Shown here: positions 43,413-56,917 of the stretch, piece by piece | How positions within the stretch are numbered: the stretch's first letter is position 1 | Layout of the letters: each line of letters opens with the position of its first letter | Source of the DNA: Thermococcus gammatolerans EJ3 | GTDB lineage: Archaea; Methanobacteriota_B; Thermococci; Thermococcales; Thermococcaceae | Reading direction: 5' to 3' | NCBI RefSeq assembly: GCF_000022365.1 | Contig: NC_012804.1 | Coordinates: 186,001 to 250,000 of the forward strand | DNA length: 64,000 bases | The notes under the pieces: model-generated | The model's database searches: none | What the model saw: the letters and a program-made list of their open reading frames with translations, nothing else | What the model was told of the DNA's origin: nothing | Made by a program: the position numbers and the translations under genes

Positions 43413-43730
43413 TTAATCGAAGGTCGGCTGGTAGCGGTACTCGATGTGGAGCTTGCTCTCGGAGTCGAGCTTTTCAGCCGCTTCAAGCAGGACCTTCCTG
43501 TCCTTCTCGGGCAACTCTTTAATCGGGAGCCTCAGCACGTCTCTGACTTCAATGTCGAAGGCCCTCGTGTTCTCGTCTATTCCGAGAGCGGACTTTATGA
43601 GCTTCACGGCCTCTTCGCTCAGCTCGCCCTCCTCCTCGATGATTAGCAGGTCGCCTGCGTAGTGGCCCGTAATCCTGGCCGAATACTCGGGGTAGTCCTC
43701 GTACTTGAAGCGGTAGAGCTTCCAGGGCAT
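43413..43730 (-). CDS. Small protein at end of formate hydrogenlyase operon
   Basis: 105 residues from ATG 43730 (GTG 43739 in frame). Acidic, mixed alpha/beta, no Cys, no membrane helix. Starts two bases before the small subunit gene ends. I do not recognise it; a soluble assembly or accessory protein of the hydrogenase is a plausible guess from position. Confidence 0.65.
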   Translation of the reverse strand: MPWKLYRFKYEDYPEYSARITGHYAGDLLIIEEEGELSEEAVKLIKSALGIDENTRAFDIEVRDVLRLPIKELPEKDRKVLLEAAEKLDSESKLHIEYRYQPTFD

Positions 43731-43731
43731 C

Positions 43732-44562
43732 TCAGACACCCGCCGTCACGGGGTACTTCTTCCTGAGGGCCTCTCCGAGAGAGTGATACTCGTCGTACAG
43801 CCTCCAGAACTCGTTTTCGAGGAAGCGCATGGCGACCTTTACCCTGGAGTCCTTCTCCTTGAGGAAGTATCCCGTGACGAGGTCGTGGAGCTTCTCCCTC
43901 GGGTTCTCATCCTCGAAGGCCTTCTCGACCAACGCCATGAAGTCGTTGAGAACCGCTTCCCTGTCGTAGTAGCCTATGACGCGCCTGAGCTCCTCGCGAA
44001 GGGTGAGCCAGTAGCGGAGCGGTATCGGCCTGTCGGGGATTCTGAACTCGACCTCGTTCTCTTTGCTCGGTGTCTCCTTCGGCGGGAGCGCAATCCAGTA
44101 TTCGCCCTTCATCTTCTTCTCCTTGATGCCGAGGAGCTGGGCCACGCCGTAGAGTATCTCCTCCGGACTCGGCGGACAGCCGGGGATGTACATGTCTATC
44201 GGCACTATCATCTCCGGCCCACCGCTCCTGAGCCTGTCTCTTCCGCGCTGGGGGGAGGTGTTGTAGAGGGCGTAGCTGTTGTAGAAGATTCCACCGCTCG
44301 AGGCGCACGTACCCACGGCAACCACTATCCTCGGCTTGGGGGGCATAGCCTCGTAGGCCTTCTTGAGCGCTATCCTCGTTTGCCTTGTAAGCGGACCGGT
44401 GATGAAGAGCGCATCCGCGTGCCTCGGGTTGGGGACGACCTTGACACCGAGCCTCTCGAGGTCGTAGTAGGGGCTGAGTACATCGAGCACCTCGATGTCA
44501 CAGCCGTTACATGAGCCCGCATCAACGTGATAGACCCAGACCGACTTGAGCCTTCTTCCCAT
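43732..44562 (-). CDS. Membrane-bound [NiFe] hydrogenase small subunit (HycG/NuoB-like)
   Basis: 276 residues. VDAGSCNGCDIEVL, VGTCASSGG and YIPGCPPSPEEIL hold the four Cys of the proximal 4Fe-4S cluster. The C-terminal extension of about 120 helical residues is longer than in bacterial HycG. Part of the eight-gene unit fdhA to here; transfers electrons to the NiFe centre. Corresponds in position to the last mhy gene of Thermococcus formate hydrogenlyase operons. Confidence 0.93.
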   Translation of the reverse strand: MGRRLKSVWVYHVDAGSCNGCDIEVLDVLSPYYDLERLGVKVVPNPRHADALFITGPLTRQTRIALKKAYEAMPPKPRIVVAVGTCASSGGIFYNSYALYNTSPQRGRDRLRSGGPEMIVPIDMYIPGCPPSPEEILYGVAQLLGIKEKKMKGEYWIALPPKETPSKENEVEFRIPDRPIPLRYWLTLREELRRVIGYYDREAVLNDFMALVEKAFEDENPREKLHDLVTGYFLKEKDSRVKVAMRFLENEFWRLYDEYHSLGEALRKKYPVTAGV

Positions 44563-45167
44563 CACTCCTCACCCCCCTTCTTCACGAGTATGAACGCTGG
44601 ATATGCGTTGCCCTCGGTTTCCCTGAGCTTCTCGACGGTCTTGCGCATCTTTGCCTCCTGGGTCAGGCCGATTCTGTCTTCAAGGGCGTACATATCGATG
44701 ATTTCCTTGGGCAGAATCGCCTTAACGTACTCAATCTGCCTCTCTGTGAAGTCGAGGTACTCACCACACTCCTCGCAGTAGGCCAGCTTGTGCTCCACTA
44801 CTTCAACGAGGTCCTCCTTGTTGTCGGTTGCTATCTCGAAGATGTTAGTCGGTTCCATAGCTCCAGTCGGGCAGACCTCAACACAGCGGTGGCACCTTAT
44901 ACATCTCGCCGCGTTGAAGGTGAGCCTCTTAACGCCGTGCTCCTTGTCCCACTCGAGGATTAGGGCATCGGGCGGGCAGGCGTTGACACAGGCTCCACAG
45001 CCTATGCACTTCTCGGGGTTGATGTGCGGGATTCCCCTGTACTCGGGTGGCTTCTCGATATCAATAAAAGGATAGGGGGTGGTGACAGGGGCCTTCTTGC
45101 TGAACTTCTCGACTTCGAAGCGGTTCCACTTCTTGAGCTTCTCGGTGTAGGAGAGGCTCTCGGCCAT
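44562..45167 (-). CDS. Hydrogenase 4Fe-4S subunit (HycF/NuoI-like)
   Basis: 201 residues. Two 4Fe-4S motifs, CIGCGACVNACP (about 55-66) and CIRCHRCVEVCP (about 88-99), followed by an extra CEECG near residue 132. Stop and start overlap with both neighbours. Relays electrons between the formate dehydrogenase arm and the small subunit. Confidence 0.93.
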   Translation of the reverse strand: MAESLSYTEKLKKWNRFEVEKFSKKAPVTTPYPFIDIEKPPEYRGIPHINPEKCIGCGACVNACPPDALILEWDKEHGVKRLTFNAARCIRCHRCVEVCPTGAMEPTNIFEIATDNKEDLVEVVEHKLAYCEECGEYLDFTERQIEYVKAILPKEIIDMYALEDRIGLTQEAKMRKTVEKLRETEGNAYPAFILVKKGGEE

Positions 45168-46966
45168 CAGAACACCCCCCTGTACTTGATTGAGAGCTCG
45201 TTGAACTCGGCCTCGGTCAGAACCTTCACCTTGCCCGTCTCGACGTCAACGAACTGAACCCTCTCTGTACAGGAGTAGCACGGGTCAATGCTCGCTATGA
45301 TGAGCGGTGCGTCTGCGACGTGATAGCCCTTGAGCATCTCCGGCACAGCTGGCAGGTTGTTGTAGGTCGGAGCTCTAACCTTCCAGCGGTAGACCTTGTT
45401 CTTCTCGCCGGTCATGACGTAGTGGACGACCTCACCGCGGTGGGCCTCGGTGAATCCTAACGCCTCTTCATACTCGGGTAAATCGCCAATCGGAACCATT
45501 ATGTCTCCGCCGGGCATCTGGTCGATGAGCTGTTCCACTATCCAGAGGCTCTCAAAGAGCTCGTCCATCCTGACGAGAACCCTGGCCAGAACATCGCCCT
45601 CCTTGTAAACCGGAACCTTGAAGTCGACCTCGTTGTAGGCCATCGCGGTCTTCGTCGCCTGGTCGAGCCTCGTGTCAATCCTCCTTCCGCTCGCGCGAGC
45701 GGTCGGTCCGAGGACGGAGTAGGCCTTGGCGACCTTGTAGGGCAGGATTCCGACTCCCTCGGCGCGCTTGATGAAGGTGTTGGTGTTCAGGGCGATGTCA
45801 AGGAACTTCTTGGTCTCCTCGCGTATCTGCTTGACGACCTTGAGAATCTCCTCCTTGCGGTAGTCGAGAATGTCCCTTCTAACTCCACCGACGATGTTCA
45901 TTCCGTACTGCTTCCTGTTTCCGGTGAGCCTCTCAACGAGCCACATGACCGGCTCACGGATTCTCCACGCGTGCATAAAGCCCGTGTCGTAGCCGACGAG
46001 GTGGGCGGCAATGCCTACCCAGAGCAGGTGGTTGTGAATCCTCTCCAGCTCGAGCATCAGCGTCCTTATGTAGCGCGCCCTGTCGGGTATGTCCACGTCA
46101 GCCAAGCGCTCGACCGCCATAGCGTAGCTGACGGAGTGCTGGTAGCCACAGATTCCGCAGATTCTCTCGGCGAGGAAGAGAACCTGGTTGTAGGTGAGCC
46201 TTCCCTCACCGGTCTTCTCTATTCCGCGGTGGGAGTAGAAGCCGCGGTAGTCAACGTCAACTATCTCCTCGCCCTTGACGAAGAGCCTGAAGTGGGCCGG
46301 CTCCTCTATGCCCGCGTGAACGGGACCCATCGGGACGAGCGTCGTTCCTTCCGGTGTCTCTCTGTACTCCGTCTTCACCTCGGCCATCGGCGAGTGCCTG
46401 TAGTCCATGTCCTTCCTGAGCGGGTAAACTCCCTCTGGCCAGTCCTCAGGAAGGATGAGCCTCCTCGGGTCTGGGTGGCCAACTGGGTTGAAGCCGAGCA
46501 GGTCCTTGACTTCCCTCTCTATCCAGAGCGCCGCGGGGAGCTTTGCTGCCACGCTCGGGAAGCTCGGGTCGTCGGCGGGCATGTAGGCCTTGAGGAAGAC
46601 CCAGTAGTTCTCGTCCATGTTCTGCGGTTCAACCTGGACGTTGAGGAAGGGCATGTAGACGAACTTGCCGTTGAGTGGCCTCTCGTCGGTTCCGACGGCG
46701 GTTGAAAGGTGTGTCTCCTTGAACTCAGGGTGGTTGTGCCACCAGAGGACCGCATCCGGAAGAACTTCCCTGTCAATGACAAACATGTACTGCCCGTAGG
46801 TCATCCTCTTGCACTCTCTAATATGCTCTTTGAAGGCCTCGTAAAACTCCTTCAGGCCCTTTCTCTCGGTAAGAATTGTCTCGACATCAGCCTTCCTGCA
46901 GTGGCCGTTTTCGCAGGCCCTGCACTCAAACTCGAAGTGAGCCTCCAAATCCCTCGTCGTTACCAT
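45167..46966 (-). CDS. [NiFe] hydrogenase large subunit, NuoC/NuoD fusion (HycE-like)
   Basis: 599 residues from ATG 46966 with GGGTGGTGAAT upstream. The N-terminal 180 residues are NuoC/HycE-like (30 kDa domain) with an extra CRACENGHC near the start. The rest is NuoD-like and keeps both nickel-binding pairs, RICGICGYQHS and DPCYSCTERV, so it is a true hydrogenase rather than a quinone oxidoreductase. About 25 residues follow the second motif, giving the tail removed by the maturation protease. Confidence 0.95.
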   Translation of the reverse strand: MVTTRDLEAHFEFECRACENGHCRKADVETILTERKGLKEFYEAFKEHIRECKRMTYGQYMFVIDREVLPDAVLWWHNHPEFKETHLSTAVGTDERPLNGKFVYMPFLNVQVEPQNMDENYWVFLKAYMPADDPSFPSVAAKLPAALWIEREVKDLLGFNPVGHPDPRRLILPEDWPEGVYPLRKDMDYRHSPMAEVKTEYRETPEGTTLVPMGPVHAGIEEPAHFRLFVKGEEIVDVDYRGFYSHRGIEKTGEGRLTYNQVLFLAERICGICGYQHSVSYAMAVERLADVDIPDRARYIRTLMLELERIHNHLLWVGIAAHLVGYDTGFMHAWRIREPVMWLVERLTGNRKQYGMNIVGGVRRDILDYRKEEILKVVKQIREETKKFLDIALNTNTFIKRAEGVGILPYKVAKAYSVLGPTARASGRRIDTRLDQATKTAMAYNEVDFKVPVYKEGDVLARVLVRMDELFESLWIVEQLIDQMPGGDIMVPIGDLPEYEEALGFTEAHRGEVVHYVMTGEKNKVYRWKVRAPTYNNLPAVPEMLKGYHVADAPLIIASIDPCYSCTERVQFVDVETGKVKVLTEAEFNELSIKYRGVF

Positions 46967-46968
46967 AT

Positions 46969-47886
46969 TCACCACCCCATGAACGCCATGCCCAGGATCA
47001 CCAAGCCGGCGAAGAACATCCTAACGTTCATCTTCACGACCTGGTCTATTCTCAGCCTTGCGTTTGTCGCTTCGAGGGCCGCTATGATCGGATAGAATGC
47101 AACGGTGAGGATGAACTGGAGGGCCAGTACGAGCGCCGCTCTCTCTGGGGTGTTTATCGGCCCGATCCAAGGCATCGTTAGCAGGCTGACGAAGAACCAC
47201 AGCAGGGCGAAGCGCTTGATGTGTATCGCGTAGTAGAAGACCCCGAGGAGCCTTCCGCTGTACTCACCCAGCGGACCGCCTATGACTTCCTGCTCTGCCT
47301 CCGCAACGTCGAATGGGACAAAGCCGCTCTCAACGTAGAGCGCGTAGGCAAGGGCTATGTACGCGAGCACGAGCGACGGTGTGAGATGCAGGTTGGCTAT
47401 GATGTCCGCTATGTTAAGGGAGCCGGCGTTGTAAGCAAGGACGCCGTAGAGAATGGCTATGAGCGGTTCCACCGTTAGGATGAGCTGGGCCTCTCTGGTA
47501 GCTCCTATGTGGCTGAAGGCGTTCTGGACGCTCAGGCCCCCGAGGATCAGGAAGACGCTGACCATCAGGATTACGTAGAAGAACACCACCAAGTTGAAGC
47601 CGAAGTCCACTGGTATGACGTTCCCGTAGGGCAGGAGCAGTGCTGCTGAGATAGCAGAGGCCAGGGCCAGGAACGGGGCTGCGGTGAAGAGTAAGCTTTT
47701 CGTTGGCTTAACGGATGGAAGGTTGAAGAGCTTCTGGAGGTCGTACCAGGTCTGCATGAGCGGCGGCCCGCGCCTGTACTGGAGTCTCGCCTTGACCCTT
47801 CTCGCTATTCCGTCAAGGTACGGCGGCAGGAGGAAGATGATGAGGATCCCAACGAGCTCGAATCCAACTTTGATCGTTGTCTCCAT
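46969..47886 (-). CDS. Hydrogenase membrane subunit (HycD/NuoH-like)
   Basis: 305 residues, about eight membrane helices. Family signatures: PPYLDGIARRVKARLQYRRGPP-type loop and ESGFVPFDVAEAEQEVIGGPL, the conserved acidic loop that links redox to ion movement in complex I. Start ATG 47886 follows GAGGTG; in-frame GTG/ATG lie a few codons upstream. Confidence 0.93.
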   Translation of the reverse strand: METTIKVGFELVGILIIFLLPPYLDGIARRVKARLQYRRGPPLMQTWYDLQKLFNLPSVKPTKSLLFTAAPFLALASAISAALLLPYGNVIPVDFGFNLVVFFYVILMVSVFLILGGLSVQNAFSHIGATREAQLILTVEPLIAILYGVLAYNAGSLNIADIIANLHLTPSLVLAYIALAYALYVESGFVPFDVAEAEQEVIGGPLGEYSGRLLGVFYYAIHIKRFALLWFFVSLLTMPWIGPINTPERAALVLALQFILTVAFYPIIAALEATNARLRIDQVVKMNVRMFFAGLVILGMAFMGW

Positions 47887-47896
47887 TTCCATCACC

Positions 47897-49891
47897 TCAC
47901 AGGGCTATCAGGATTCCTATCACGGCCCCGATGACTACCAGGGTCAGTACCACGAAAGTTCCAAGTCTCATTCCTGGCAGGACGTTCTTGACGATCCTGA
48001 GCAGTCTGAGCAACGGTTTGAGGGCCTCCTCGTCTATGTTCATTATCTCCCTCTCGCGGAGGTCGTCGAGGGTCTCAACCTTTGTGTACGGGGTGTCGAC
48101 TACCTTGGTGAAGTAGCTCGCCATCCAGAGGTAAGCCCTGGTTATGTAGTGGATTACTCCAGCTCCAACGGTGTAGAACCAGTCGCCGAGGCGATAGAAA
48201 GAGCCTATCTTCTTCTCGTACCAGTTGTAGTAGCCCTCGGCGTTCGTCCTGTACTCGTCCTCGTCTATTTCTGTTGAACCGCAGTCCCAGGGCTTCGTTT
48301 CCTTTCCGAACTCTGGCTTGAAGGTCAGGTACAGGGCAGCCGCGAGTGCGCCGAGGAGTATCACAAAGATCACCGGCGAGAAGAGCACCGAGCCGAAGCC
48401 TATTCTGTAAATGTTCTCGGTGAGGGGTGCGTTGAACGGCTCGTTGAGGATTGGGACCACTATCCTGGGGAACACTCCAATGATTAGGGTTAGACCTGCC
48501 AGGATCCACTGGCCGAGGAGCATTCCCGCCGGAACCTCCTCGACGTTCTCGTAGCGCTTCATCTCACCGCCGAACTGAGCTCCGTAGAATTTCATTGAAT
48601 ACGCAAGGGTTCCAGCACTGAAGAAGACCGCTAACACGGCTCCAAATATGAGCAAGGGATTTGAGGAACTGTAACCTGAGACGTAGATGAGCCACTTGCT
48701 TATGAAGCCGTTGAAGGGGGGAACACCGCTTATGGCGAGCGATGCAAAGAGTGCCGCTAGGGCCGTGAACTTCATCCTCCTGCCGAGGCCGCCGAGCTCG
48801 TTGAGGTCAACGGTTCCCGTCCTATACTCAACTGCCCCAGCCGAGAGGAAGAGTGAGGCCTTGAATATGGCGTGGTTGAGGGCGTGGAAGAGGCCGGCAA
48901 AGGCTCCGAGTGCCCCTATCGTCCCAAGGAAACCACCTTTTGGAACGAGAACCATCCCTATACCGATCCCCAGCCATATATAGCCCATCTGGCTTATTGA
49001 AGAGTACGCGAGCAGTCTTTTGGCGTTGTTTTCCCTGAGCGCGTACAGAGTTGCGTACGTGATTGTGATCATGCCCGCGAGGGCTACGATGATGCCTGCG
49101 TCTCCCTCGATTCCCGCTGTCTTCCATACAAGCGCCAGGATTCCGTAGAGTGCCATCTTCTCCATAGCTCCTGCCATTATTGCCGAAACGTGGGATGGGG
49201 CTGCCCTGTAGGTTTCTGCAACCCAGAAGCTGAAGGGGAATAACCCAGCCTTGGCAGTGAATGCGATCATCAAAAGTCCTGCAAACACAAGACGTGATGT
49301 GTGGTGTGTGGAGAGAGCCGCCCCTATGTTCTCGAACGTTAGCTCCTCGAAGTTTCCGATAAGTGAGTACGCCGTTCCGAGGGCGAGGAAGAGCGGGATC
49401 GTGTCGAGGAAGTGCATGGTGATGTAGTACTTGACGCTCGCGTTGACGTCCCTCGCTTTCTCGCTGAAGAAGACTAGTATGAAGGAACTGAGTGTCATTA
49501 GCTCCCAGCTCATAACGAAGTACTCCATGCTGTCAACGGTGACGACGAGTGTCATGCTGGCGAGGAACGTGTTGTAGGCTATCGCGTACACCCAGCCCTT
49601 TCCCGTTTTCTCAAAGAGATCCATATAATTGATCGCGAATAGCGAAGCCGCGACGCCCACTATGCCTATGATCAGCAGGAAGACGTTTGAGAGACCGCTC
49701 ACGTTCATGGGGATCCCAAAGAGACTGAACATCTCTGGACCGTTGGTGTAGACGTGGTAGACCTCACCGAGGAGTGCGAGTGACCCCAGGAACGCCATGA
49801 AGCTCGAGGCCTTCACACTTACCCTGTAGTCCCTAACGAGGCCTATCACACCGCCAATGATGAAGGCTATGATAGCGTACTCAAGGAACAT
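47897..49891 (-). CDS. Antiporter-like membrane subunit (HycC/HyfB/NuoL type)
   Basis: 664 residues with some 15-16 membrane helices in the first 520 and a long hydrophilic segment (about 520-630) before a final helix. VMSWELMTLSSFILV, MAGAMEKMALYG and LAYSSISQMGYIWLGIG mark the proton-antiporter family with conserved Glu and Lys. Likely pumps protons or sodium when hydrogen is released. Confidence 0.92.
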   Translation of the reverse strand: MFLEYAIIAFIIGGVIGLVRDYRVSVKASSFMAFLGSLALLGEVYHVYTNGPEMFSLFGIPMNVSGLSNVFLLIIGIVGVAASLFAINYMDLFEKTGKGWVYAIAYNTFLASMTLVVTVDSMEYFVMSWELMTLSSFILVFFSEKARDVNASVKYYITMHFLDTIPLFLALGTAYSLIGNFEELTFENIGAALSTHHTSRLVFAGLLMIAFTAKAGLFPFSFWVAETYRAAPSHVSAIMAGAMEKMALYGILALVWKTAGIEGDAGIIVALAGMITITYATLYALRENNAKRLLAYSSISQMGYIWLGIGIGMVLVPKGGFLGTIGALGAFAGLFHALNHAIFKASLFLSAGAVEYRTGTVDLNELGGLGRRMKFTALAALFASLAISGVPPFNGFISKWLIYVSGYSSSNPLLIFGAVLAVFFSAGTLAYSMKFYGAQFGGEMKRYENVEEVPAGMLLGQWILAGLTLIIGVFPRIVVPILNEPFNAPLTENIYRIGFGSVLFSPVIFVILLGALAAALYLTFKPEFGKETKPWDCGSTEIDEDEYRTNAEGYYNWYEKKIGSFYRLGDWFYTVGAGVIHYITRAYLWMASYFTKVVDTPYTKVETLDDLREREIMNIDEEALKPLLRLLRIVKNVLPGMRLGTFVVLTLVVIGAVIGILIAL

Positions 49892-49897
49892 TTTTCA

Positions 49898-51334
49898 TCA
49901 CCCCATGAAGCTTATCTTCATGACAACGTCCAGCGTTATCCACGGGGCAACGATGCCTATGAGTATCAGAACGACCATTGCAGCGATCATGAGCTTTGGT
50001 TCACCCGTTTCTGCCCTTGGCTCTGGCTCACCGAAGAATATCTCCCTGAACCACAGGAGGACAACCACGAGGAAGATGGCCGCATCGAAGAGAACTACCG
50101 CAGGGAAGAGCCAGGAGGCAATGCCCCCTATCTCGCGTGTGCTCATGATTGTGAAAGCCTTGCTGAAGAACAGGCCGAGCGGAAGAACACCGGCCAATCC
50201 GAGGAAGCTCAGGAACCAGGCAACGCTGGCCCACGGAAGGCTTCTTTTTATTCCTCTTATGCCCTTGAGGTCTGTCGTTCCGAGGGAGTACACGAAGGCA
50301 CCAACGCTCATGAAGGCGAGGGCCTTTACGAAGGCGTGGTTAACGACCTGGTAGATGGCTATCTGCAGGCCGACGTCGTGTCCGAGGAGTGCGTAGGCCA
50401 GTGTTATGTACGAAACGCCCGTCTGGCCTATCGTGGAATAGGCTATGAGCCTCTTGGCGTCGCGCTGGAGCGGGTAGTATATCATCATGAGAAGTATCAG
50501 CGCCACGGTGAGCGCTCCCAGGAGCCAGAAGTCGCCCCTGCCTGGGTTCATGTACTGGATAACGCGGAAGAGCATGAAGCTTCCCAGCGGAACTACTGAA
50601 GCCGCGTGGATGTATGCTGATGCCGGAACGGGCCCTGCCGTTGCATCCGGAAGCCACGAGTAGAAGAAGAACTGCGAGCTCATCGCGAAGGCCGCGAAGG
50701 TGAGAATCGCGAAGACCTTGTCCTTCGTTGACTGGGAGAGCGAGCCCATATTTGCAAGTTCTTGCCCGTTGCCGAGAAGGACGATCGAGAGCAGCAGGAG
50801 GAAAACGCCGAGGTTCAGGACGAGGAATGCCTTCAATGCCTTTCCTTCCGCGTTTCCATGGAAGTTCACGAGGTAAAACAGCGCCACCGCCATCAGCTCA
50901 AGGAAGATGGCGAACTGAACCAGGTTCGTTGAGTATATGAACGCCATGCTTGAACCCACGAGCAGTCCGAGGAGTGCGTAGAAGCGCCCCTTGCCTTCGT
51001 TGAGGGGAAATCCCCTGTTCGAGGGTCCCAGATAGTCGGCCGCGTAGAGTACGAGCAGGAATGCGGTGAGTATCGAAACGAAGCCCATCAAGACCGATGC
51101 CACGTCAACGTTGAGGCCGAATACCTCCCCGAGCTTGTTCCCGGAGGCGTAGGAGAAGTGGTAAACCTTATCAGCCCCGGATCCAAAGAAGGCGTAGGCC
51201 CCAAAGCCATTTATTGCCAGTGTAAGGCCAGTTATCAGGATTGCGAGGCCATCGGCGGTTCTGCCCTCCGTCCTATATATGAGCAGCAACAGGAAGGGCA
51301 AGAGTGCCGAGACTATGAACACGGTGCCGTTCAC
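49898..51334 (-). CDS. Antiporter-like membrane subunit (NuoN/M, HyfB-like)
   Basis: 478 residues from GTG 51334, about 14 membrane helices. IFLELMAVALFYLV, ASAYIHAASVVPLG and LIAYSTIGQTGVSYI are the antiporter-family landmarks. Two such subunits per operon is the plan of Thermococcus formate hydrogenlyase. First membrane gene after the Fe-S subunit. Confidence 0.92.
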   Translation of the reverse strand: MNGTVFIVSALLPFLLLLIYRTEGRTADGLAILITGLTLAINGFGAYAFFGSGADKVYHFSYASGNKLGEVFGLNVDVASVLMGFVSILTAFLLVLYAADYLGPSNRGFPLNEGKGRFYALLGLLVGSSMAFIYSTNLVQFAIFLELMAVALFYLVNFHGNAEGKALKAFLVLNLGVFLLLLSIVLLGNGQELANMGSLSQSTKDKVFAILTFAAFAMSSQFFFYSWLPDATAGPVPASAYIHAASVVPLGSFMLFRVIQYMNPGRGDFWLLGALTVALILLMMIYYPLQRDAKRLIAYSTIGQTGVSYITLAYALLGHDVGLQIAIYQVVNHAFVKALAFMSVGAFVYSLGTTDLKGIRGIKRSLPWASVAWFLSFLGLAGVLPLGLFFSKAFTIMSTREIGGIASWLFPAVVLFDAAIFLVVVLLWFREIFFGEPEPRAETGEPKLMIAAMVVLILIGIVAPWITLDVVMKISFMG

Positions 51335-51385
51335 TTTTCACCACCCCTTGGTTTTTAACCCTTGGTTTCCATTGAAAAAAATTAA

Positions 51386-51883
51386 TCAGAGGATGACGTA
51401 GGCCTTCTCGCCCTCTCCCTTCTCGGCCGAGCTCTTCAGATTGGCAACTACCTTTCCTTCCCTGTTCCAGAGTATCTCGTTCACATCGCCGAACTTAAGG
51501 GCCTCAGTTGGGCAGGCCGAGACACATGCTGGAAGCAGACCTTCTGCCCTTCTGTCGGCACAGAGGTCGCACTTGTCCATGATCTTGTTCTCCTCGTCGA
51601 GCTTGGGGACGCCGAATGGACAGGCTACGGCACACATGAGACAGCCGATACACTTGAGGGGGTCGAAGGCAACAGCTCCGTCCTTGTCCCTGAAGAGCGC
51701 TCCTGTCGGACAGACGTTGAGACAGGGGGCCTTCTCACAGTGGCGGCAGTTGAAGGGGACGGTGAAGAGGTCGGGAAACTCGAAGACCCTGATGCGGGCT
51801 TCGCCGTGAGCCATTTCACAGGCCACTTCACAGGCCTTACAGCCGATACAGCGCTTATAGTCGAGGAAAATCTTCTTGCTCAT
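51386..51883 (-). CDS. Formate dehydrogenase electron-transfer Fe-S subunit (HycB-like)
   Basis: 165 residues from ATG 51883. Four Cys clusters of the 4x(4Fe-4S) polyferredoxin type: CIGCKACEVACEM, CRHCEKAPCLNVCP, CIGCLMCAVACP, and CDLCADRR with CVSACP. Takes electrons from FdhA to the hydrogenase. Ten bases after fdhA. Confidence 0.92.
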   Translation of the reverse strand: MSKKIFLDYKRCIGCKACEVACEMAHGEARIRVFEFPDLFTVPFNCRHCEKAPCLNVCPTGALFRDKDGAVAFDPLKCIGCLMCAVACPFGVPKLDEENKIMDKCDLCADRRAEGLLPACVSACPTEALKFGDVNEILWNREGKVVANLKSSAEKGEGEKAYVIL

Positions 51884-51893
51884 TCCAACCACC

Positions 51894-53951
51894 TCACTCC
51901 TCCACCTTACTAACCCTGGCCGCGACGGCCTTCAGCTCTGCCATCTTGGTTATCTCGTGGGTCTCCTCAAGGGTCAGGACGTTGACGTTCCAGTGCCAGG
52001 GCATCGCTATAACGCCCTCCCTGACGTGCTCAGTGACCTCTGCCCTCACGAGAACGCTTCCGCGCTTGGTCTCCACCTTAACGAGGTCCCCGCTCTTTAT
52101 GCCGTACTTCTCGGCGTCCTTCGGGTTAATCATGACGTACTCCTCTGGCCAGCGCTTCTTCAGGCTGGGGCTCTCGAAGGACATCGTTCCCGTGTGCCAG
52201 TGGCCGACCTGCCTGAAGTTGGTGAGCCAGAGCGGGTACTCCTCGTCGGGCATCTCCGGCGGCTCACGCCACTTGACGGGCTGGAGGTGGGCCTTTCCAT
52301 CTGCCGTCTTGAAGCCCTTCTTGAAGAGGATCTTCGTTCCCTCCCCTGGCTCTGTGCACGGGAAGAAGCATCCTTCGGGGTGCTCGGCGAGGTATTCGGG
52401 AGTTGCGCCTTTGAAGACCGGAATAACGCTGTTTATTTCCCTGAGAATCTCGTCCGGGTGCTCGTACTTGAAGTACTCACCGAGCCCGAGCTCCTTGGCT
52501 AGCTCAACAAGAATGAGCCAGTCGGGCTTTGCTTCACCGGGGGCTTCGGCGGCCTTGTAAGTCCTCTGAACCCTCCTCTCGGCGCTTATTGCCGTTCCCG
52601 TCTTCTCGAACCATGCTGCCGCCGGGAGGACTATGTCGGCGTATTTAGCCGTCTCGGTGAGGAATATGTCCTGCACAACGAGGAAGTCGAGCTTCTTGAG
52701 CTGCTCCTGAACCCACTTGCTGTTCGGGGCAGACTTGGCGATGTTGCCGCCGACGATGTACATCATTTTGATTGTGTTACCAATCTCGCGTATCATGCTG
52801 GTGAGGTCAAGGCCAACCCAGTCGGGTATCTTGAAGCCCCAGAGCCTCTCGAGCTCAGCTCTCGCGGCCTCGTCGGTAACGAGCTTTCCAGTGGGGAGCT
52901 TGTTGGGGGCGATGCCGCTCATCGCCGCACAGAATCCACACTGCGCTCCCGGGAAGACACCGCTCCAGACGCCTTCCTTGCCGATGTTGCCGGTGATCGC
53001 TATGAGATTCGCAAGGGCGAGGGCAAACTCAAAGCCGTTGACGTGCTGGTTGAGACCCTCGTTGACGAGAAGGGCCGTTCTCTTCGTCGCTATTAGCCTC
53101 GCGACCTTCCTTATGTCTTCAGCTGGGACACCGCTTATCTTCTCGGCCCACTCTGGGGTGTAGTCCTTAACGGACTCCTTGAGCTCCTCGAAGCCAACAG
53201 TCCTCTCCTGGACGAACTCCCTGTCGTAGAGCTCCTCGCTTATGACAACGTTGAGCATGGCCAGGGCTATCGCAAGGTCGGTTCCGGGATAGGGCTTAAG
53301 GTGGATTGAGGCGTACTTGTGGCCCCTCGTGGCACGTGGGTCAATAACAACCATCTCGGCGCCGTTGTCAAGGACGGCCTTCTCGATGTACTGACCGAAG
53401 AAGACCGGCGCGGTTTCAGCAGGGTTGTGGCCCCAGATGACTATCAGCTCGGCCTTGGCAACGTCCTCGAAGGGGTTCGTGGCCGGAGCGCTTCCAAACA
53501 CCTTGGTTCTCGCAGGGGCGTTGGAGTACTGGCAGTACCTTCCCGGGAAGTCGAGGTGGTTGGTTCCTATTGCCTTTGACAGCTTGTGGACGAGGTAGTT
53601 CTCCTCGAGGGTTATCTTCTCGCTTCCGAGGAAGGCTATTGCCTCGGGGCCATAGGTCTCCTTGATTTCCTTGATTTTCTCTGCGATTATCCTGTAGGCC
53701 TCATCCCAGCTTATCTCCTCGAACTTCCCTTCTCCCCTCTCTCCAACGCGCTTGAGCGGCTTCTTGAGTCTCTTAGAGCTGTTGATGAACTGGTAGGAAG
53801 CAACGCCCTTGGGGCAGAGCTTTCCGCGGTTGACGGTGGGGTGGTCGTAGTCGAACTCGATCTTCCTGATGTAGCCGTTAACGCTGACCGCGTAGAAGCG
53901 ACAGCCGACTGAACACCAGGGGCATACAACAGGTACGAGTTTCTCTGCCAT
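51894..53951 (-). CDS. fdhA: Formate dehydrogenase catalytic subunit (FdhA/FdhF)
   Basis: 685 residues from ATG 53951 with GGGTGAT upstream. The N-terminal 4Fe-4S cluster uses Cys10, 13, 17 and 46 (CPWCSVGC then LCPKG). DFPGRYCQYSNAPART places Cys140 at the position of the metal-binding Sec/Cys of formate dehydrogenases, followed by the conserved HNPAET and bis-MGD binding motifs such as VGGNIAKSAPNS and the C-terminal LTNFRQVGHWHTGTM. Oxidises formate to CO2; probably W- or Mo-bis-MGD. First gene of the operon, with a TetR-type operator at its start site. Confidence 0.95.
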   Translation of the reverse strand: MAEKLVPVVCPWCSVGCRFYAVSVNGYIRKIEFDYDHPTVNRGKLCPKGVASYQFINSSKRLKKPLKRVGERGEGKFEEISWDEAYRIIAEKIKEIKETYGPEAIAFLGSEKITLEENYLVHKLSKAIGTNHLDFPGRYCQYSNAPARTKVFGSAPATNPFEDVAKAELIVIWGHNPAETAPVFFGQYIEKAVLDNGAEMVVIDPRATRGHKYASIHLKPYPGTDLAIALAMLNVVISEELYDREFVQERTVGFEELKESVKDYTPEWAEKISGVPAEDIRKVARLIATKRTALLVNEGLNQHVNGFEFALALANLIAITGNIGKEGVWSGVFPGAQCGFCAAMSGIAPNKLPTGKLVTDEAARAELERLWGFKIPDWVGLDLTSMIREIGNTIKMMYIVGGNIAKSAPNSKWVQEQLKKLDFLVVQDIFLTETAKYADIVLPAAAWFEKTGTAISAERRVQRTYKAAEAPGEAKPDWLILVELAKELGLGEYFKYEHPDEILREINSVIPVFKGATPEYLAEHPEGCFFPCTEPGEGTKILFKKGFKTADGKAHLQPVKWREPPEMPDEEYPLWLTNFRQVGHWHTGTMSFESPSLKKRWPEEYVMINPKDAEKYGIKSGDLVKVETKRGSVLVRAEVTEHVREGVIAMPWHWNVNVLTLEETHEITKMAELKAVAARVSKVEE

Positions 53952-53966
53952 GGCTATCACCCTTCT

Positions 53967-53984
53967 AATGACTGACCAGTCATT
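53967..53984. promoter_or_regulatory. TetR-type operator at fdhA start site
   Basis: AATGACTG-AC-CAGTCATT, a perfect eight-base-arm palindrome. On the minus strand a CTATTTAAGG TATA box (54002-54011) puts transcription start near 53980, inside the palindrome. Confidence 0.7.
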
Positions 53985-54070
53985 TAGAATGAACGTCAAG
54001 ACCTTAAATAGTTTTCTGCAATGGCCGAAACAGAATGAACTAATGTGGAAAACTGTGTTAAATGGGTGTT

Positions 54071-54664
54071 TCAAACACTGGCCGAGAGACGAAGGTGGTT
54101 AAGGACGACGTCAACGGCCTTCTTGAGATAGTGCTCCCTTGAAAAGCCCAGACAATCCCCTGCATGGAGATAGTGCATCAAAGAGGCTAAAAACACCTGA
54201 AACGCTATGAGCGCGTCCTCAAAACCCACTTTAACGTAAGCAGTAATTCTCCTCGCTCCTTCCCTTAAAAGCTCCGAGCAGGCTTGGTGATAGATATCGT
54301 CAATGCTCTTCATCCTCTCGCGAACCGAGAGCATGTGGAAGAAGATCTCCGCCCGGTAGTTCTCTGAATAAAAGCTAAGGAACTCTCTCCCAAGCTGGAG
54401 AAGGTAGCTCTCAAGTGTCGGGAACGAAACAGTAATGTAAGGGTCGTTTAAGGACGGCATGGCCATTATGGGCATTACCTCGAAGGCGAGCTCTTTTATG
54501 AGGTCGTCCTTGCTCTTGAAGTATAGGTAAAACGTCCCCTTGGCAACTCCCGCCCTGGCGACTATCTCGTCTACCGTCGTTTTATCAAAGCCCTTCTTCG
54601 CGAAGAGCTCCATTGCCGCGGAAACGAGCTTCTCGCGGGTTTTACCGGGGGACTTTGTGACCAT
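54071..54664 (-). CDS. TetR family regulator of the formate hydrogenlyase region
   Basis: 197 residues. The N-terminal TetR HTH shows AAMELFAKKGFDKTTVDEIV and AGVAKGTFYLYFKSKDDLI (about 16-55). The C-terminal ligand domain is helical. It lies just upstream of fdhA on the same strand, with its own TATA (54720-54729) and a TGAC-N6-GTCA site near its start, so it probably represses itself and the operon. ATG 54670 is another possible start. Ligand unknown; formate or a redox signal is a guess. Confidence 0.9.
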   Translation of the reverse strand: MVTKSPGKTREKLVSAAMELFAKKGFDKTTVDEIVARAGVAKGTFYLYFKSKDDLIKELAFEVMPIMAMPSLNDPYITVSFPTLESYLLQLGREFLSFYSENYRAEIFFHMLSVRERMKSIDDIYHQACSELLREGARRITAYVKVGFEDALIAFQVFLASLMHYLHAGDCLGFSREHYLKKAVDVVLNHLRLSASV

Positions 54665-54676
54665 TCCCATCCCTTC

Positions 54677-54690
54677 TGACTACACGGTCA
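54677..54690. promoter_or_regulatory. Operator-like site before TetR gene
   Basis: TGAC-TACACG-GTCA, same spacing as the fdhA site, a few bases after the predicted transcription start of the TetR gene. Confidence 0.55.
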
Positions 54691-54777
54691 TTTCCTTATG
54701 GACAGCTATGTGCAGAAGGGAATTTAAACTTTCCGCTCGGTGGACATAACATAGAGAACAAAAAAGAGTCTGTAAAA

Positions 54778-55161
54778 TCACAGAACCGAATTAATTAGCT
54801 CCTCATCTACCTTTGCGACCTCTGAGAGGAGTTCCCCGAGCTCTCCAGGAACTATCTTTGCGAAAAGCCCCATGTTCATACCGAAGACGTACACACCGTC
54901 AGGCATCTCTATTATGGAGAACTTGCACGGCATCATGGCTGAAATCCAGCGGTTCTCGGGCTTTTCGAGGGCCTTCTTTGCGAACTCCTTGTTGCAGATT
55001 TCAACGATTGCAAACCTTATTCCGAGCTTTTCAGTGAAGTCATACTCCCCGATAACGCTCCAGCCCAGCTCGTCAACCTTTTTCTTAATCCTCTCGAGGG
55101 TTTCCTCAAATCCGTGTTTGCTCTTCACTCCTTTGACCATCTGCTTCATCATGTCCTCCAT
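54778..55161 (-). CDS. DUF302 family protein
   Basis: 127 residues from ATG 55161 with AGGTGACTGGC before it. SKHGFEETLERIKKKVDELGW and the phrase ICNKEFAKKALEKPENRWISAMMPCKFSIIE are typical of DUF302, a small homodimeric alpha/beta fold of unknown function found in many archaea. It has an operator-like site at its start, so it likely belongs to the TetR regulon. Confidence 0.85.
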   Translation of the reverse strand: MEDMMKQMVKGVKSKHGFEETLERIKKKVDELGWSVIGEYDFTEKLGIRFAIVEICNKEFAKKALEKPENRWISAMMPCKFSIIEMPDGVYVFGMNMGLFAKIVPGELGELLSEVAKVDEELINSVL

Positions 55162-55171
55162 GCCAGTCACC

Positions 55172-55185
55172 TGACTGACTGGTCA
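55172..55185. promoter_or_regulatory. Operator-like site before DUF302 gene
   Basis: TGAC-TGACTG-GTCA; the minus-strand ATTTATAGAC box (55194-55204) predicts a start within it. The same box region could also serve the divergent hypC-like gene. Confidence 0.6.
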
Positions 55186-55230
55186 GGAAAAGGTCTATAA
55201 ATCGTTTTCCTTCACCTTTGGTTGGTAACC

Positions 55231-55485
55231 ATGGCCCTGATGTTAGCTGGAAGGGTCGTTGAAGTCAGGGATGGAAAGGCGATAGTCGACGTTGATGGCC
55301 AGCTCAGAGAAGCAAAGCTGGACTTCGTGAGGAACGTGAAACCTGGGGACTACGTAAAGATTTACTACGGCATAGTCCTTGAGAAGGTCACGAGAGAAGA
55401 GGCTGAGGAGACCCTTGCGAGGTGCTCCTACCACCGCTCGAGCAAACTCGAACTGACCTTCACGGTTTCAAACCTGAAGTTTTAG
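55231..55485 (+). CDS. HypC-like protein lacking Cys2
   Basis: 84 residues from ATG 55231. Aligns without gaps to the true HypC beginning at 55531 (MALMLAGRVVEV against MCLATVAKVLEV; then AKLDFVRNVKPGDYVKIYYGIVLEKV). Residue 2 is Ala instead of the essential Cys that carries the Fe(CN)2CO group, so it cannot be a normal HypC. Possibly a competing or scaffolding paralogue. The frame is intact and not a pseudogene by length. Confidence 0.8.
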   Translation: MALMLAGRVVEVRDGKAIVDVDGQLREAKLDFVRNVKPGDYVKIYYGIVLEKVTREEAEETLARCSYHRSSKLELTFTVSNLKF

Positions 55486-55530: not shown

Positions 55531-55791
55531 ATGTGCTTGGCAACCGTCGCTAAGGTTTTGGAAGTTAACAGGGAGAAGGGAACCGCGTGGGTTGACTTCG
55601 GGGGCGTTAAGAGAGAGGCGAGGATTGATTTGATGCCCGATGTCAAGCCCGGTGAATACGTGCTTATTCACACGGGTTTCATAATAGAGAAGGTTGACGA
55701 GCAAACGGCCAAGGAGATACTGAGCGCCTGGGAGGAGGTCTTCAAAGCCGAGGAAAACGCACTTGGAGGTTACTACTACCCGGGTGATTGA
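55531..55791 (+). CDS. hypC: Hydrogenase maturation chaperone HypC
   Basis: 86 residues from ATG 55531 with AGGTGAAGC upstream, giving the required MC start. Binds the iron-cyanide intermediate together with HypD and passes it to the hydrogenase large subunit. It ends two bases before the hypD start. Confidence 0.95.
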   Translation: MCLATVAKVLEVNREKGTAWVDFGGVKREARIDLMPDVKPGEYVLIHTGFIIEKVDEQTAKEILSAWEEVFKAEENALGGYYYPGD

Positions 55792-55792
55792 G

Positions 55793-56917
55793 ATGAGCCT
55801 GCAGTCGGTTCTTGCCCCCTACAGGGACAGAGAGATAGCTCAAAAGCTCGTGGAGAAAATCAAGGAAGAGGCAAAAACCCTCGACGGCGAGATAAGGATA
55901 ATGCACGTCTGCGGGACTCACGAGGACACGATTACCCGCTCTGGAATTCGCTCGCTCCTTCCAGAGAACGTTAAAGTAGTCAGCGGACCCGGCTGTCCGG
56001 TCTGCATAACACCGGTTGAAGATATCGTGGCGATGCAGCTGATTATGAAAAAGGCCCGTGAGGAGGGAGACGAGATAATCCTCACGACCTTCGGTGACAT
56101 GTACAAAATCCCCACTCCAATGGGAAGCTTTGCCGACTTGAAGAGCGAGGGCTACGACGTGAGGGTCGTTTACTCTATCTACGATGCCTATAAGATGGCC
56201 AAGGAGAACCCCGACAAAACCGTCGTCCACTTCAGCCCTGGCTTCGAAACGACAACCGCCCCAACAGCCGGGATGCTTAACGCCGTCGTCAACGAGGACA
56301 TCGAGAACTTCAAGATTTATTCCGTGCACAGGCTCACGCCCCAGGGAATAGAGGTTCTCATAAAGCAGAAGAGCAGGATAGACGCGCTCATAGATGCGGG
56401 TCACGTCTCGACGATAATAGGCGTCAGGGGCTGGGAGTTCCTGAGCGAGAAGTATGGAATCCCACAGGTCATAGCGGGCTTCGAGCCTAACGACGTCCTC
56501 CTCGCGATTCTGCTCCTCATAAGGATGTACAAGGAAGGAGACGCGAGGGTGGTGAACGAGTACAAGCGCGCCGTCAAGTACGAGGGCAACGTTGTCGCGC
56601 AGGAACTCATGAACAGGTATTTCAAGGTGGTCGATGCAAAGTGGCGCGCCCTCGGCGTGTTTCCCAAGACTGGCCTTGAGGTCAGGGACGAGTTCAAAGA
56701 GCTCGAAATAAGAAACTCCTACCGCGTCGAGGTGCCGAAAAACCTGCCAGACCTTGAAAAAGGCTGTCTCTGCGGCGCCGTGCTTAGGGGTCTGGCGATG
56801 CCAACCGACTGTCCGCACTTTGGCAAGACCTGCACGCCGAGGCACCCGATAGGGCCCTGCATGGTGTCCTACGAGGGAACCTGCCACATCTTCTACAAGT
56901 ACGGGGCGTTGTTCTAA
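55793..56917 (+). CDS. hypD: Hydrogenase maturation protein HypD
   Basis: 374 residues from ATG 55793 with GGGTGAT upstream. Motifs HVCGTHEDT, SGPGCPVC, HFSPGFETTTAPTAG and the Cys-rich end (CLCG, DCPHFGKTC, GPCMVSYEGTC) are complete, giving the 4Fe-4S cluster and redox thiols on which the Fe(CN)2CO unit is assembled. Confidence 0.97.
   Translation: MSLQSVLAPYRDREIAQKLVEKIKEEAKTLDGEIRIMHVCGTHEDTITRSGIRSLLPENVKVVSGPGCPVCITPVEDIVAMQLIMKKAREEGDEIILTTFGDMYKIPTPMGSFADLKSEGYDVRVVYSIYDAYKMAKENPDKTVVHFSPGFETTTAPTAGMLNAVVNEDIENFKIYSVHRLTPQGIEVLIKQKSRIDALIDAGHVSTIIGVRGWEFLSEKYGIPQVIAGFEPNDVLLAILLLIRMYKEGDARVVNEYKRAVKYEGNVVAQELMNRYFKVVDAKWRALGVFPKTGLEVRDEFKELEIRNSYRVEVPKNLPDLEKGCLCGAVLRGLAMPTDCPHFGKTCTPRHPIGPCMVSYEGTCHIFYKYGALF

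What the first reader, a model, noticed from the sequence alone, without database searches (positions are those of the whole stretch)
53967..55185. A three-site TetR regulon over the formate hydrogenlyase
TGAC-N6-GTCA occurs three times within 1.2 kb: at 53967-53984 (as AATGACTGACCAGTCATT), 54677-54690 and 55172-55185. Each site lies at or just past the start site predicted from a TATA box, for fdhA, the TetR gene and the DUF302 gene. This predicts a single repressor that senses a signal tied to formate metabolism, and ties a DUF302 protein of unknown role to the pathway.
Basis: partly seen in the sequence, partly recalled or inferred. Interest (0 to 1): 0.75.

Follow-up and report, generated by a model that had tools for sequence, protein, structure and literature searches.

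The report
TetR regulon of formate hydrogenlyase
In a heat-loving archaeon (probably Thermococcus gammatolerans) one regulator of the TetR type almost certainly controls a formate-to-hydrogen enzyme, its own gene and a divergent pair of small genes through one DNA tag that is conserved across 39 related genomes, but published expression data suggest that it does not respond to formate as first guessed.

Summary
The three sites are real, and their clustering is far from chance. The tight motif TGACTGACYRGTCA occurs in 39 of 94 Thermococcaceae genomes, exactly the 39 that carry an ortholog of this TetR. Every copy lies at the formate hydrogenlyase (FHL) locus. The fdhA operator is exact in 39/39 genomes, even between clades whose TetR proteins share only about 31-46% identity and whose promoter flanks have no similarity left. 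In Pyrococcus-like G004 the tetR gene lies 15 kb from fdhA, and both promoters keep an operator. A local, autoregulated TetR regulon is strongly supported.

Two parts of the interpretation change. The third site belongs to a bidirectional promoter: it lies over the predicted DUF302 start and directly upstream of the TATA box of hypC1, and is kept where DUF302 is absent. HypC1 is a HypC-like protein found only with this TetR; it lacks the essential Cys2. The canonical hypC2-hypD operon keeps its own SurR motif inside hypC1. Formate is unlikely to be the inducer: in T. onnurineus this FHL is made on sulfur/peptide medium rather than formate, and in T. paralvinellae it falls on formate. The signal is unknown. 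Binding was not tested.

The parts
53967..53984 (-). Operator 1 (AATGACTGACCAGTCATT; core 53969-53982) over the predicted fdhA transcription start, 31 nt upstream of the fdhA start codon
   Evidence: exact in 39/39 TetR+ genomes at -30 to -36; 12 of 14 positions identical between clades whose flanks are 29-34% identical
54003..54010 (-). TATA box of the fdhA promoter (TATTTAAG)
   Evidence: sequence; TAT[AT]TAA 21-38 nt upstream of the operator in 38/39 genomes
54677..54690 (-). Operator 2 (TGACTACACGGTCA, weaker inner bases) just past the predicted tetR start, 20 nt before the tetR start codon
   Evidence: TGACY-N4-RGTCA exact in 33/39 genomes
54722..54729 (-). TATA box of tetR (GTTTAAAT)
   Evidence: sequence, my reading
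55170..55187 (.). Operator 3 (CCTGACTGACTGGTCAGG; core 55172-55185): over the predicted DUF302 start and directly upstream of the hypC1 TATA box
   Evidence: 23/26 exact and 3/26 with one mismatch, with (20) or without (6) DUF302
55196..55202 (.). Shared bidirectional TATA (TATAAAT / ATTTATA) for hypC1 (+) and DUF302 (-)
   Evidence: sequence; a TATA element is conserved at this place in the hypC1 direction in genomes lacking DUF302
54071..54670 (-). TetR-family repressor, 199 aa, invariant Cys131
   Evidence: Pfam TetR_N 73.5 bits; all-helical model pLDDT 92 matching TetR structures; C131 in 39/39 orthologs
51894..53951 (-). fdhA, formate dehydrogenase alpha, first gene of the FHL operon
   Evidence: TIGR01591 668 bits, cutoff 666
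43413..51892 (-). Rest of the FHL (Mhy1) operon: fdhB, two antiporter-like subunits, NuoH-like, [NiFe] hydrogenase large subunit, Fe-S protein, small subunit, last gene
   Evidence: ORFs, NCBIfam/Pfam
54778..55170 (-). DUF302 protein (likely start ATG 55161), invariant Cys59 and Cys82
   Evidence: Pfam PF03625 25.5 bits, cutoff 23; fold matches 1q9u; close orthologs only next to this TetR
55231..55485 (+). hypC1: HypC-like protein lacking the N-terminal Cys2, conserved CSYH/CSY
   Evidence: Pfam HupF_HypC 55.5 bits; close orthologs only in 26 TetR+ genomes; no Cys2 in any
55465..55481 (+). SurR-type motif GTTn3AACn5GTT inside the 3' end of hypC1, 66 nt upstream of hypC2
   Evidence: retained in 22/25 genomes; same position at the hyp promoter of 35 TetR- genomes
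55531..56917 (+). hypC2 (canonical, MCLA) and hypD

Best explanation
A dedicated TetR-family repressor controls the FHL (Mhy1) locus through one palindromic operator, TGACYR-N2-YRGTCA. With no effector bound, the dimer sits over the fdhA start and just past the tetR start and blocks RNA polymerase, so that it represses the fhl operon and itself. At the third, bidirectional promoter it lies over the DUF302 start (repression expected) and directly upstream of the hypC1 TATA box (repression by blocking TFB, or activation; sign open). Release by an unknown effector turns on FHL together with DUF302 where present and probably hypC1, an FHL-associated HypC-like accessory. The canonical hypC2-hypD genes keep a separate SurR-type promoter, so the maturation cluster has two inputs. 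Shown: sites, positions, conservation, strict co-occurrence with the TetR. Inferred: binding, repression, co-induction. The effector is probably not formate.
For: Tight motif present in exactly the 39 of 94 genomes with the TetR ortholog, every copy at the FHL locus. fdhA operator exact in 39/39 at -30 to -36, tetR operator 33/39, hypC1/DUF302 operator 26/26 with at most one mismatch. Between clades with 31-46% identical TetR the operator is unchanged while flanks are 29-34% identical; the DNA-binding helices are nearly invariant. G004 keeps operators at fdhA and tetR although they lie 15 kb apart. Genomes with a second FdhA paralog (G038, G089) have the tight motif only at the TetR locus, and T. 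litoralis, whose FHL has no such TetR, has none. 50 hyp promoters of TetR- genomes have none.
Against: No binding or transcription experiment. The loose motif TGAC-N6-GTCA is common in the genome (39 copies). Six genomes lack a recognisable tetR operator. In T. onnurineus HypE/HypF from the same cluster fall on sulfur while FHL rises, so simple co-induction of all hyp genes is not seen; there the hyp promoter has no TetR operator.
Confidence: 0.85

Rival explanations
1. One reading: the repressor senses formate or a close formate metabolite and induces FHL when formate is present.
For: The controlled operon encodes a formate dehydrogenase-hydrogenase complex; local TetR repressors often sense the substrate of their target (general knowledge).
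Against: T. onnurineus Fdh1A/Fdh1B were detected on sulfur/peptide medium and not on formate, and the Hyg4-I transcripts are lower on formate (PMC4463584; PMC5316973). T. paralvinellae Group 4 fhl falls on formate (PMC10025317). Operons of this group lack a formate transporter (PMC10025317).
Confidence: 0.1
2. The TetR is a thiol or redox switch for sulfur/polysulfide through Cys131: DNA-bound when reduced, released on elemental sulfur. It would run opposite to SurR, turning this FHL on when the other hydrogenases are turned off.
For: T. onnurineus Mhy1/Fdh1 up on sulfur, in contrast to its other hydrogenase clusters, 'to our surprise' (PMC4463584); Cys131 is the only cysteine invariant in 39/39 orthologs; the DUF302 partner has two invariant cysteines.
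Against: Sulfur and peptides are confounded in the T. onnurineus media; an invariant cysteine may be structural; identification of G025 as T. onnurineus rests on synteny and remembered genome size; no data in T. gammatolerans.
Confidence: 0.25
3. The third operator makes TetR an activator of hypC1, because it sits directly upstream of BRE/TATA, where SurR activates.
For: Position directly upstream of the hypC1 TATA in all 26 genomes; in Thermococcales SurR activates from upstream of TATA and represses from downstream (PMC12162507).
Against: The same site lies over the DUF302 start; it could also block TFB; TetR proteins are mostly repressors.
Confidence: 0.3
4. The motif is conserved only because the genomes are closely related.
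For: The nearest relative is 95% identical in the TetR.
Against: Operator unchanged between clades whose flanks have dropped to 29-34% identity; conserved at three separate promoters and where tetR and fdhA lie far apart.
Confidence: 0.02

Closest known systems
TetR/AcrR gene upstream of 'Group 4' fhl operons in Thermococci (Holden & Sistu 2023, PMC10025317)
   Same: Same gene pair; the review states that all but one Group 4 fhl operon has a TetR gene about 350 nt upstream and that no SurR site is present.
   Different: The passages read (sections 7.2 and 8.2) give no operator, no autoregulation, no hypC1/DUF302 link and no target list; the mechanism is called unknown.
SurR regulon of Thermococcales
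   Same: Controls hydrogenase and hyp genes; site position relative to TATA sets the sign; the SurR motif GTTn3AACn5GTT is still present upstream of hypC2 here.
   Different: Different protein family (ArsR-like wHTH with CxxC) and motif; no SurR motif near the TATA of the fdhA promoters (only a short half motif more than 120 nt upstream in 2 of 39).
Bacterial TetR-family repressors with known structures (FadR, MtrR, FasR, QacR type)
   Same: N-terminal TetR_N helix-turn-helix, all-helical fold; short palindromic operator at the start site and autoregulation are usual in this family (general knowledge).
   Different: Ligand domain resembles no one structure closely (TM about 0.5-0.74, 14-23% identity); ligand unknown; archaeal promoter.
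Sulfolobus acidocaldarius FadR (archaeal TetR-family regulator, PMC6449355)
   Same: Archaeal TetR-family local regulator; a SaFadR-DNA structure (6en8) is among the fold matches.
   Different: Fatty acid metabolism; by sequence only the HTH aligns (6el2/6en8, E 2e-10, residues 10-64).

Membership tests
TetR/AcrR family regulator | N-terminal TetR_N HTH domain | tested here: met
   PF00440 73.5 bits, cutoff 24; all 19 aligned orthologs match
TetR/AcrR family regulator | All-helical fold like solved TetR proteins | tested here: met
   AlphaFold2 pLDDT 92, helices only; 292 PDB matches with E<=0.001, top ones TetR family
TetR/AcrR family regulator | Palindromic operator in its own promoter | tested here: met
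   33/39 genomes exact; binding itself not testable
TetR/AcrR family regulator | Ligand-released DNA binding | not testable with these tools
   needs EMSA and ligand screen
Formate hydrogenlyase, Group 4 (PMC10025317) | fdhA in an operon with membrane [NiFe] hydrogenase and antiporter-type subunits, TetR upstream in the same direction, no SurR site at the promoter | tested here: met
   fdhA group membership by tree not tested
SurR-controlled promoter (fdhA) | GTTn3AACn5GTT upstream of TATA | tested here: not met
   none near TATA in 39 fdhA promoters; by contrast the hypC2 promoter has it at 55465-55481
HypC/HupF chaperone (hypC1) | HypC family profile match | tested here: met
   PF01455 55.5 bits, cutoff 28.5; TIGR00074 48.9, cutoff 48
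HypC/HupF chaperone (hypC1) | Essential Cys2, proposed ligand of the iron (PMC12130793) | tested here: not met
   MALMLAGRV or similar in all 26 orthologs, against MCLA in HypC2; HypC1 is HypC-like, not a canonical HypC
DUF302 (PF03625) | Domain match and fold | tested here: met
   25.5 bits, cutoff 23; model matches 1q9u, TM 0.75-0.77

The most novel reading that the evidence does not exclude
The TetR is a second sulfur/redox switch of Thermococcales that works opposite to SurR: a thiol on Cys131 releases it when elemental sulfur is present, so that one particular formate hydrogenlyase, together with a Cys2-less HypC and a cysteine-containing DUF302 protein, is switched on exactly when the other hydrogenases are switched off.
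Probability: 0.2. Interest if true: 0.75.

Novelty: new member of a known kind. Interest (0 to 1): 0.52.

Why it matters
Regulation of the Group 2-5 formate dehydrogenase genes of Thermococci was stated to be unknown (PMC10025317). This gives a defined operator, a defined regulator and a short list of targets that can be tested by gel shift and knock-out in tractable Thermococcus species. It separates two kinds of FHL in the same cells: the SurR-linked one with a formate transporter, used for growth on formate, and this TetR-controlled one that is not induced by formate. It also points to an unrecognised HypC-like protein without the essential Cys2 that travels with the regulator.

Tried and rejected
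1) Regulator swap from SurR to TetR at the hyp promoter: suggested by TetR- genomes with SurR motifs at the hyp promoter but rejected when the SurR motif was found intact upstream of hypC2 inside hypC1. 2) T. litoralis expression data (FHL up on peptides, down on sulfur; PMC2432063) as evidence on this regulon: rejected, because a primer from that paper identifies genomes without the TetR and motif, and that FdhA is only 33% identical. 3) DUF302 as the main target of site 3: rejected. 4) A wider regulon: only one more good palindrome in the genome, at the CO dehydrogenase locus, far from both core promoters and shared with one close relative only; left as unproven. 5) A genome-contig scan with the TetR alignment returned mostly unrelated TetR proteins through the HTH pattern; no use. 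6) Ligand from fold comparison: matches are generic TetR folds; no ligand can be read off.

Full report
WHAT IS THERE. The window lies at 186001-250000 of a complete 2,045,438-base genome; size and gene content fit Thermococcus gammatolerans EJ3 (from memory; the genome paper PMC2718504 describes a formate hydrogenlyase 'Mhy1' with hyp genes nearby). On the minus strand run DUF302 (55170-54778), tetR (54670-54071), fdhA (53951-51894) and the rest of the FHL operon down to about 43413; on the plus strand, starting 45 nt beyond the third site, hypC1, hypC2, hypD, hypF and, further on, hypE.

THE OBSERVATION. The count in 64 kb is only mildly unusual (5 of 100 shuffles), but the clustering is not chance. 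The loose pattern is common in the genome (39 copies), so by itself it is a poor regulon probe; the tight form TGACTGACYRGTCA occurs twice, both here, with one further copy at one mismatch.

CONSERVATION TEST. An ortholog of the TetR is found in 39 of 94 Thermococcaceae genomes (a fortieth hit, G093, is a 74-residue HTH match) and in no further genome among 115 of the phylum at E<=1e-25. The tight motif is found in exactly those 39 genomes, and every copy lies near the tetR gene or at the fdhA promoter of the same locus. Site by site: the fdhA operator is exact in 39/39, 30-36 nt before the start codon; the tetR operator is exact in 33/39; the hypC1/DUF302 operator is exact in 23/26 and has one mismatch in 3/26. 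Between clades in which the TetR proteins share about 31-46% identity the fdhA promoter flanks are 29-34% identical, near chance, while 12 of 14 operator positions are identical. In G004, a Pyrococcus-like genome, tetR lies at the far end of the FHL cluster, 15 kb from fdhA; operators are present at both promoters. Controls: genomes with a second FdhA paralog (G038, G089) have the tight motif only at the TetR locus; 50 hyp promoters from TetR-less genomes contain none; HypD itself is present in all 74 good-quality genomes.

GEOMETRY. At fdhA the TATA element lies 21-38 nt upstream of the operator (28 nt in 22 of 39), which puts the operator on the expected start site: a repressing position in Thermococcales (for SurR, sites downstream of TATA repress and sites upstream activate, PMC12162507). 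At tetR the operator is just past the start. At site 3 a single TATAAAT element can serve two directions: the operator is over the DUF302 start and directly upstream of the hypC1 TATA box. The sign of the effect on hypC1 is therefore open.

THE THIRD SITE REASSIGNED. DUF302 orthologs (50-98% identity) occur in 20 genomes, always next to the TetR. The third operator is also present in the six genomes that have hypC1 but no DUF302, at a near-constant distance from hypC1 (59-65 nt upstream in 25 genomes, 42 in one case where the hypC1 start is uncertain). hypC1 orthologs (63-99%) occur in 26 genomes, all TetR-positive. All lack the N-terminal cysteine: they begin MALMLAGRV or similar, whereas HypC2 and the HypC of TetR-less genomes begin MCLA. 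C2 of HypC is described as highly conserved and essential, a predicted ligand of the iron in the HypCD scaffold (PMC12130793), so HypC1 cannot be a canonical HypC; it has a conserved CSY(H) instead.

SURR STILL PRESENT. TetR-less genomes carry the SurR motif GTTn3AACn5GTT 63-69 nt before hypC in 35 of 49 informative cases, and visibly degenerate forms in most others. I first read the TetR-positive loci as a replacement of SurR by TetR. That is wrong: the window has GTTTCAAACCTGAAGTT at 55465-55481, 66 nt before hypC2 and overlapping the end of hypC1, and 22 of 25 comparable genomes keep it. So an extra TetR-controlled gene (hypC1) stands in front of a SurR-type hypC2-hypD promoter, giving the maturation cluster two inputs. 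The TetR-positive genomes of the T. onnurineus type (L080-L087) have no hypC1 and no operator at the hyp promoter.

THE SIGNAL. Two published data sets from T. onnurineus and one from T. paralvinellae bear on it. In T. [quoted passage not shown] Hyg4-I transcripts were lower on formate and CO than on that medium (PMC5316973). The gene order there (fdhA 0281, deletion of fdh1 includes 0282, HypF 0286, HypE 0287, cysteine desulfurase 0289; PMC4463584 and PMC8965080) matches locus L080 of G025 (fdhA, TetR, hypC/D, hypF, hypE, 97-aa ORF, class-V aminotransferase), which has the TetR and the operator; the identification of G025 as T. onnurineus is an inference from synteny and remembered genome size. 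In T. paralvinellae the Group 4 fhl operon fell on formate (PMC10025317). Formate is therefore unlikely to be the inducer. Sulfur and peptides are confounded in these media. Cys131 is the only cysteine conserved in all 39 orthologs, which makes a thiol switch worth testing, no more than that. T. litoralis data do not apply: its FHL is of another type (33% identical FdhA) without this TetR or motif.

PROTEINS. The TetR model (pLDDT 92) is a generic TetR fold; PDB matches include FadR, FasR, MtrR and NalC at TM about 0.6-0.74 and give no ligand. DUF302 matches 1q9u and 1j3m and has two invariant cysteines (C59, C82); its role remains unknown.

NOVELTY. The neighbourhood of TetR and Group 4 fhl operons is published (PMC10025317). 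In the papers searched I found no operator, autoregulation, target list or hypC1/DUF302 link. The kind of system (a local autoregulated TetR repressor) is known; the instance is new.

Noticed in passing
window 55231-55485: HypC1 is a HypC-family protein without the essential N-terminal Cys2, with a conserved CSY(H); 26 close orthologs, all in genomes with this TetR.
   Followed up: partly
window 55465-55481: Perfect SurR motif GTTn3AACn5GTT overlapping the 3' end of hypC1, 66 nt before hypC2; conserved in 22 of 25 genomes.
   Followed up: yes
L203:2352-2365 (G000:C1:775351-775364): Palindrome CTGACTGTTCAGTCAG in the divergent intergenic region between a CooC-like ATPase gene and the CO dehydrogenase genes; possible fourth site or another regulator's site; shared with G062 only.
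   Followed up: partly
L075:18149, L083:9226, L085:8894, L086:9263, L087:9077: Some loci carry a second palindrome of the type TGACYAWWTGGTCA 60-105 nt upstream of the fdhA operator, perhaps a second TetR dimer site.
   Followed up: no
L080-L087, hypC promoter: hyp promoters of the T. onnurineus-type loci have neither SurR motif nor TetR operator but share ATGCAACATTTAAAAA around the TATA box.
   Followed up: no
window 55221-55229: In most hypC1 genomes GGTTGRTAACC (a short SurR half motif GTTn3AAC) lies right at the hypC1 start; may be a second SurR input or only leader sequence.
   Followed up: no
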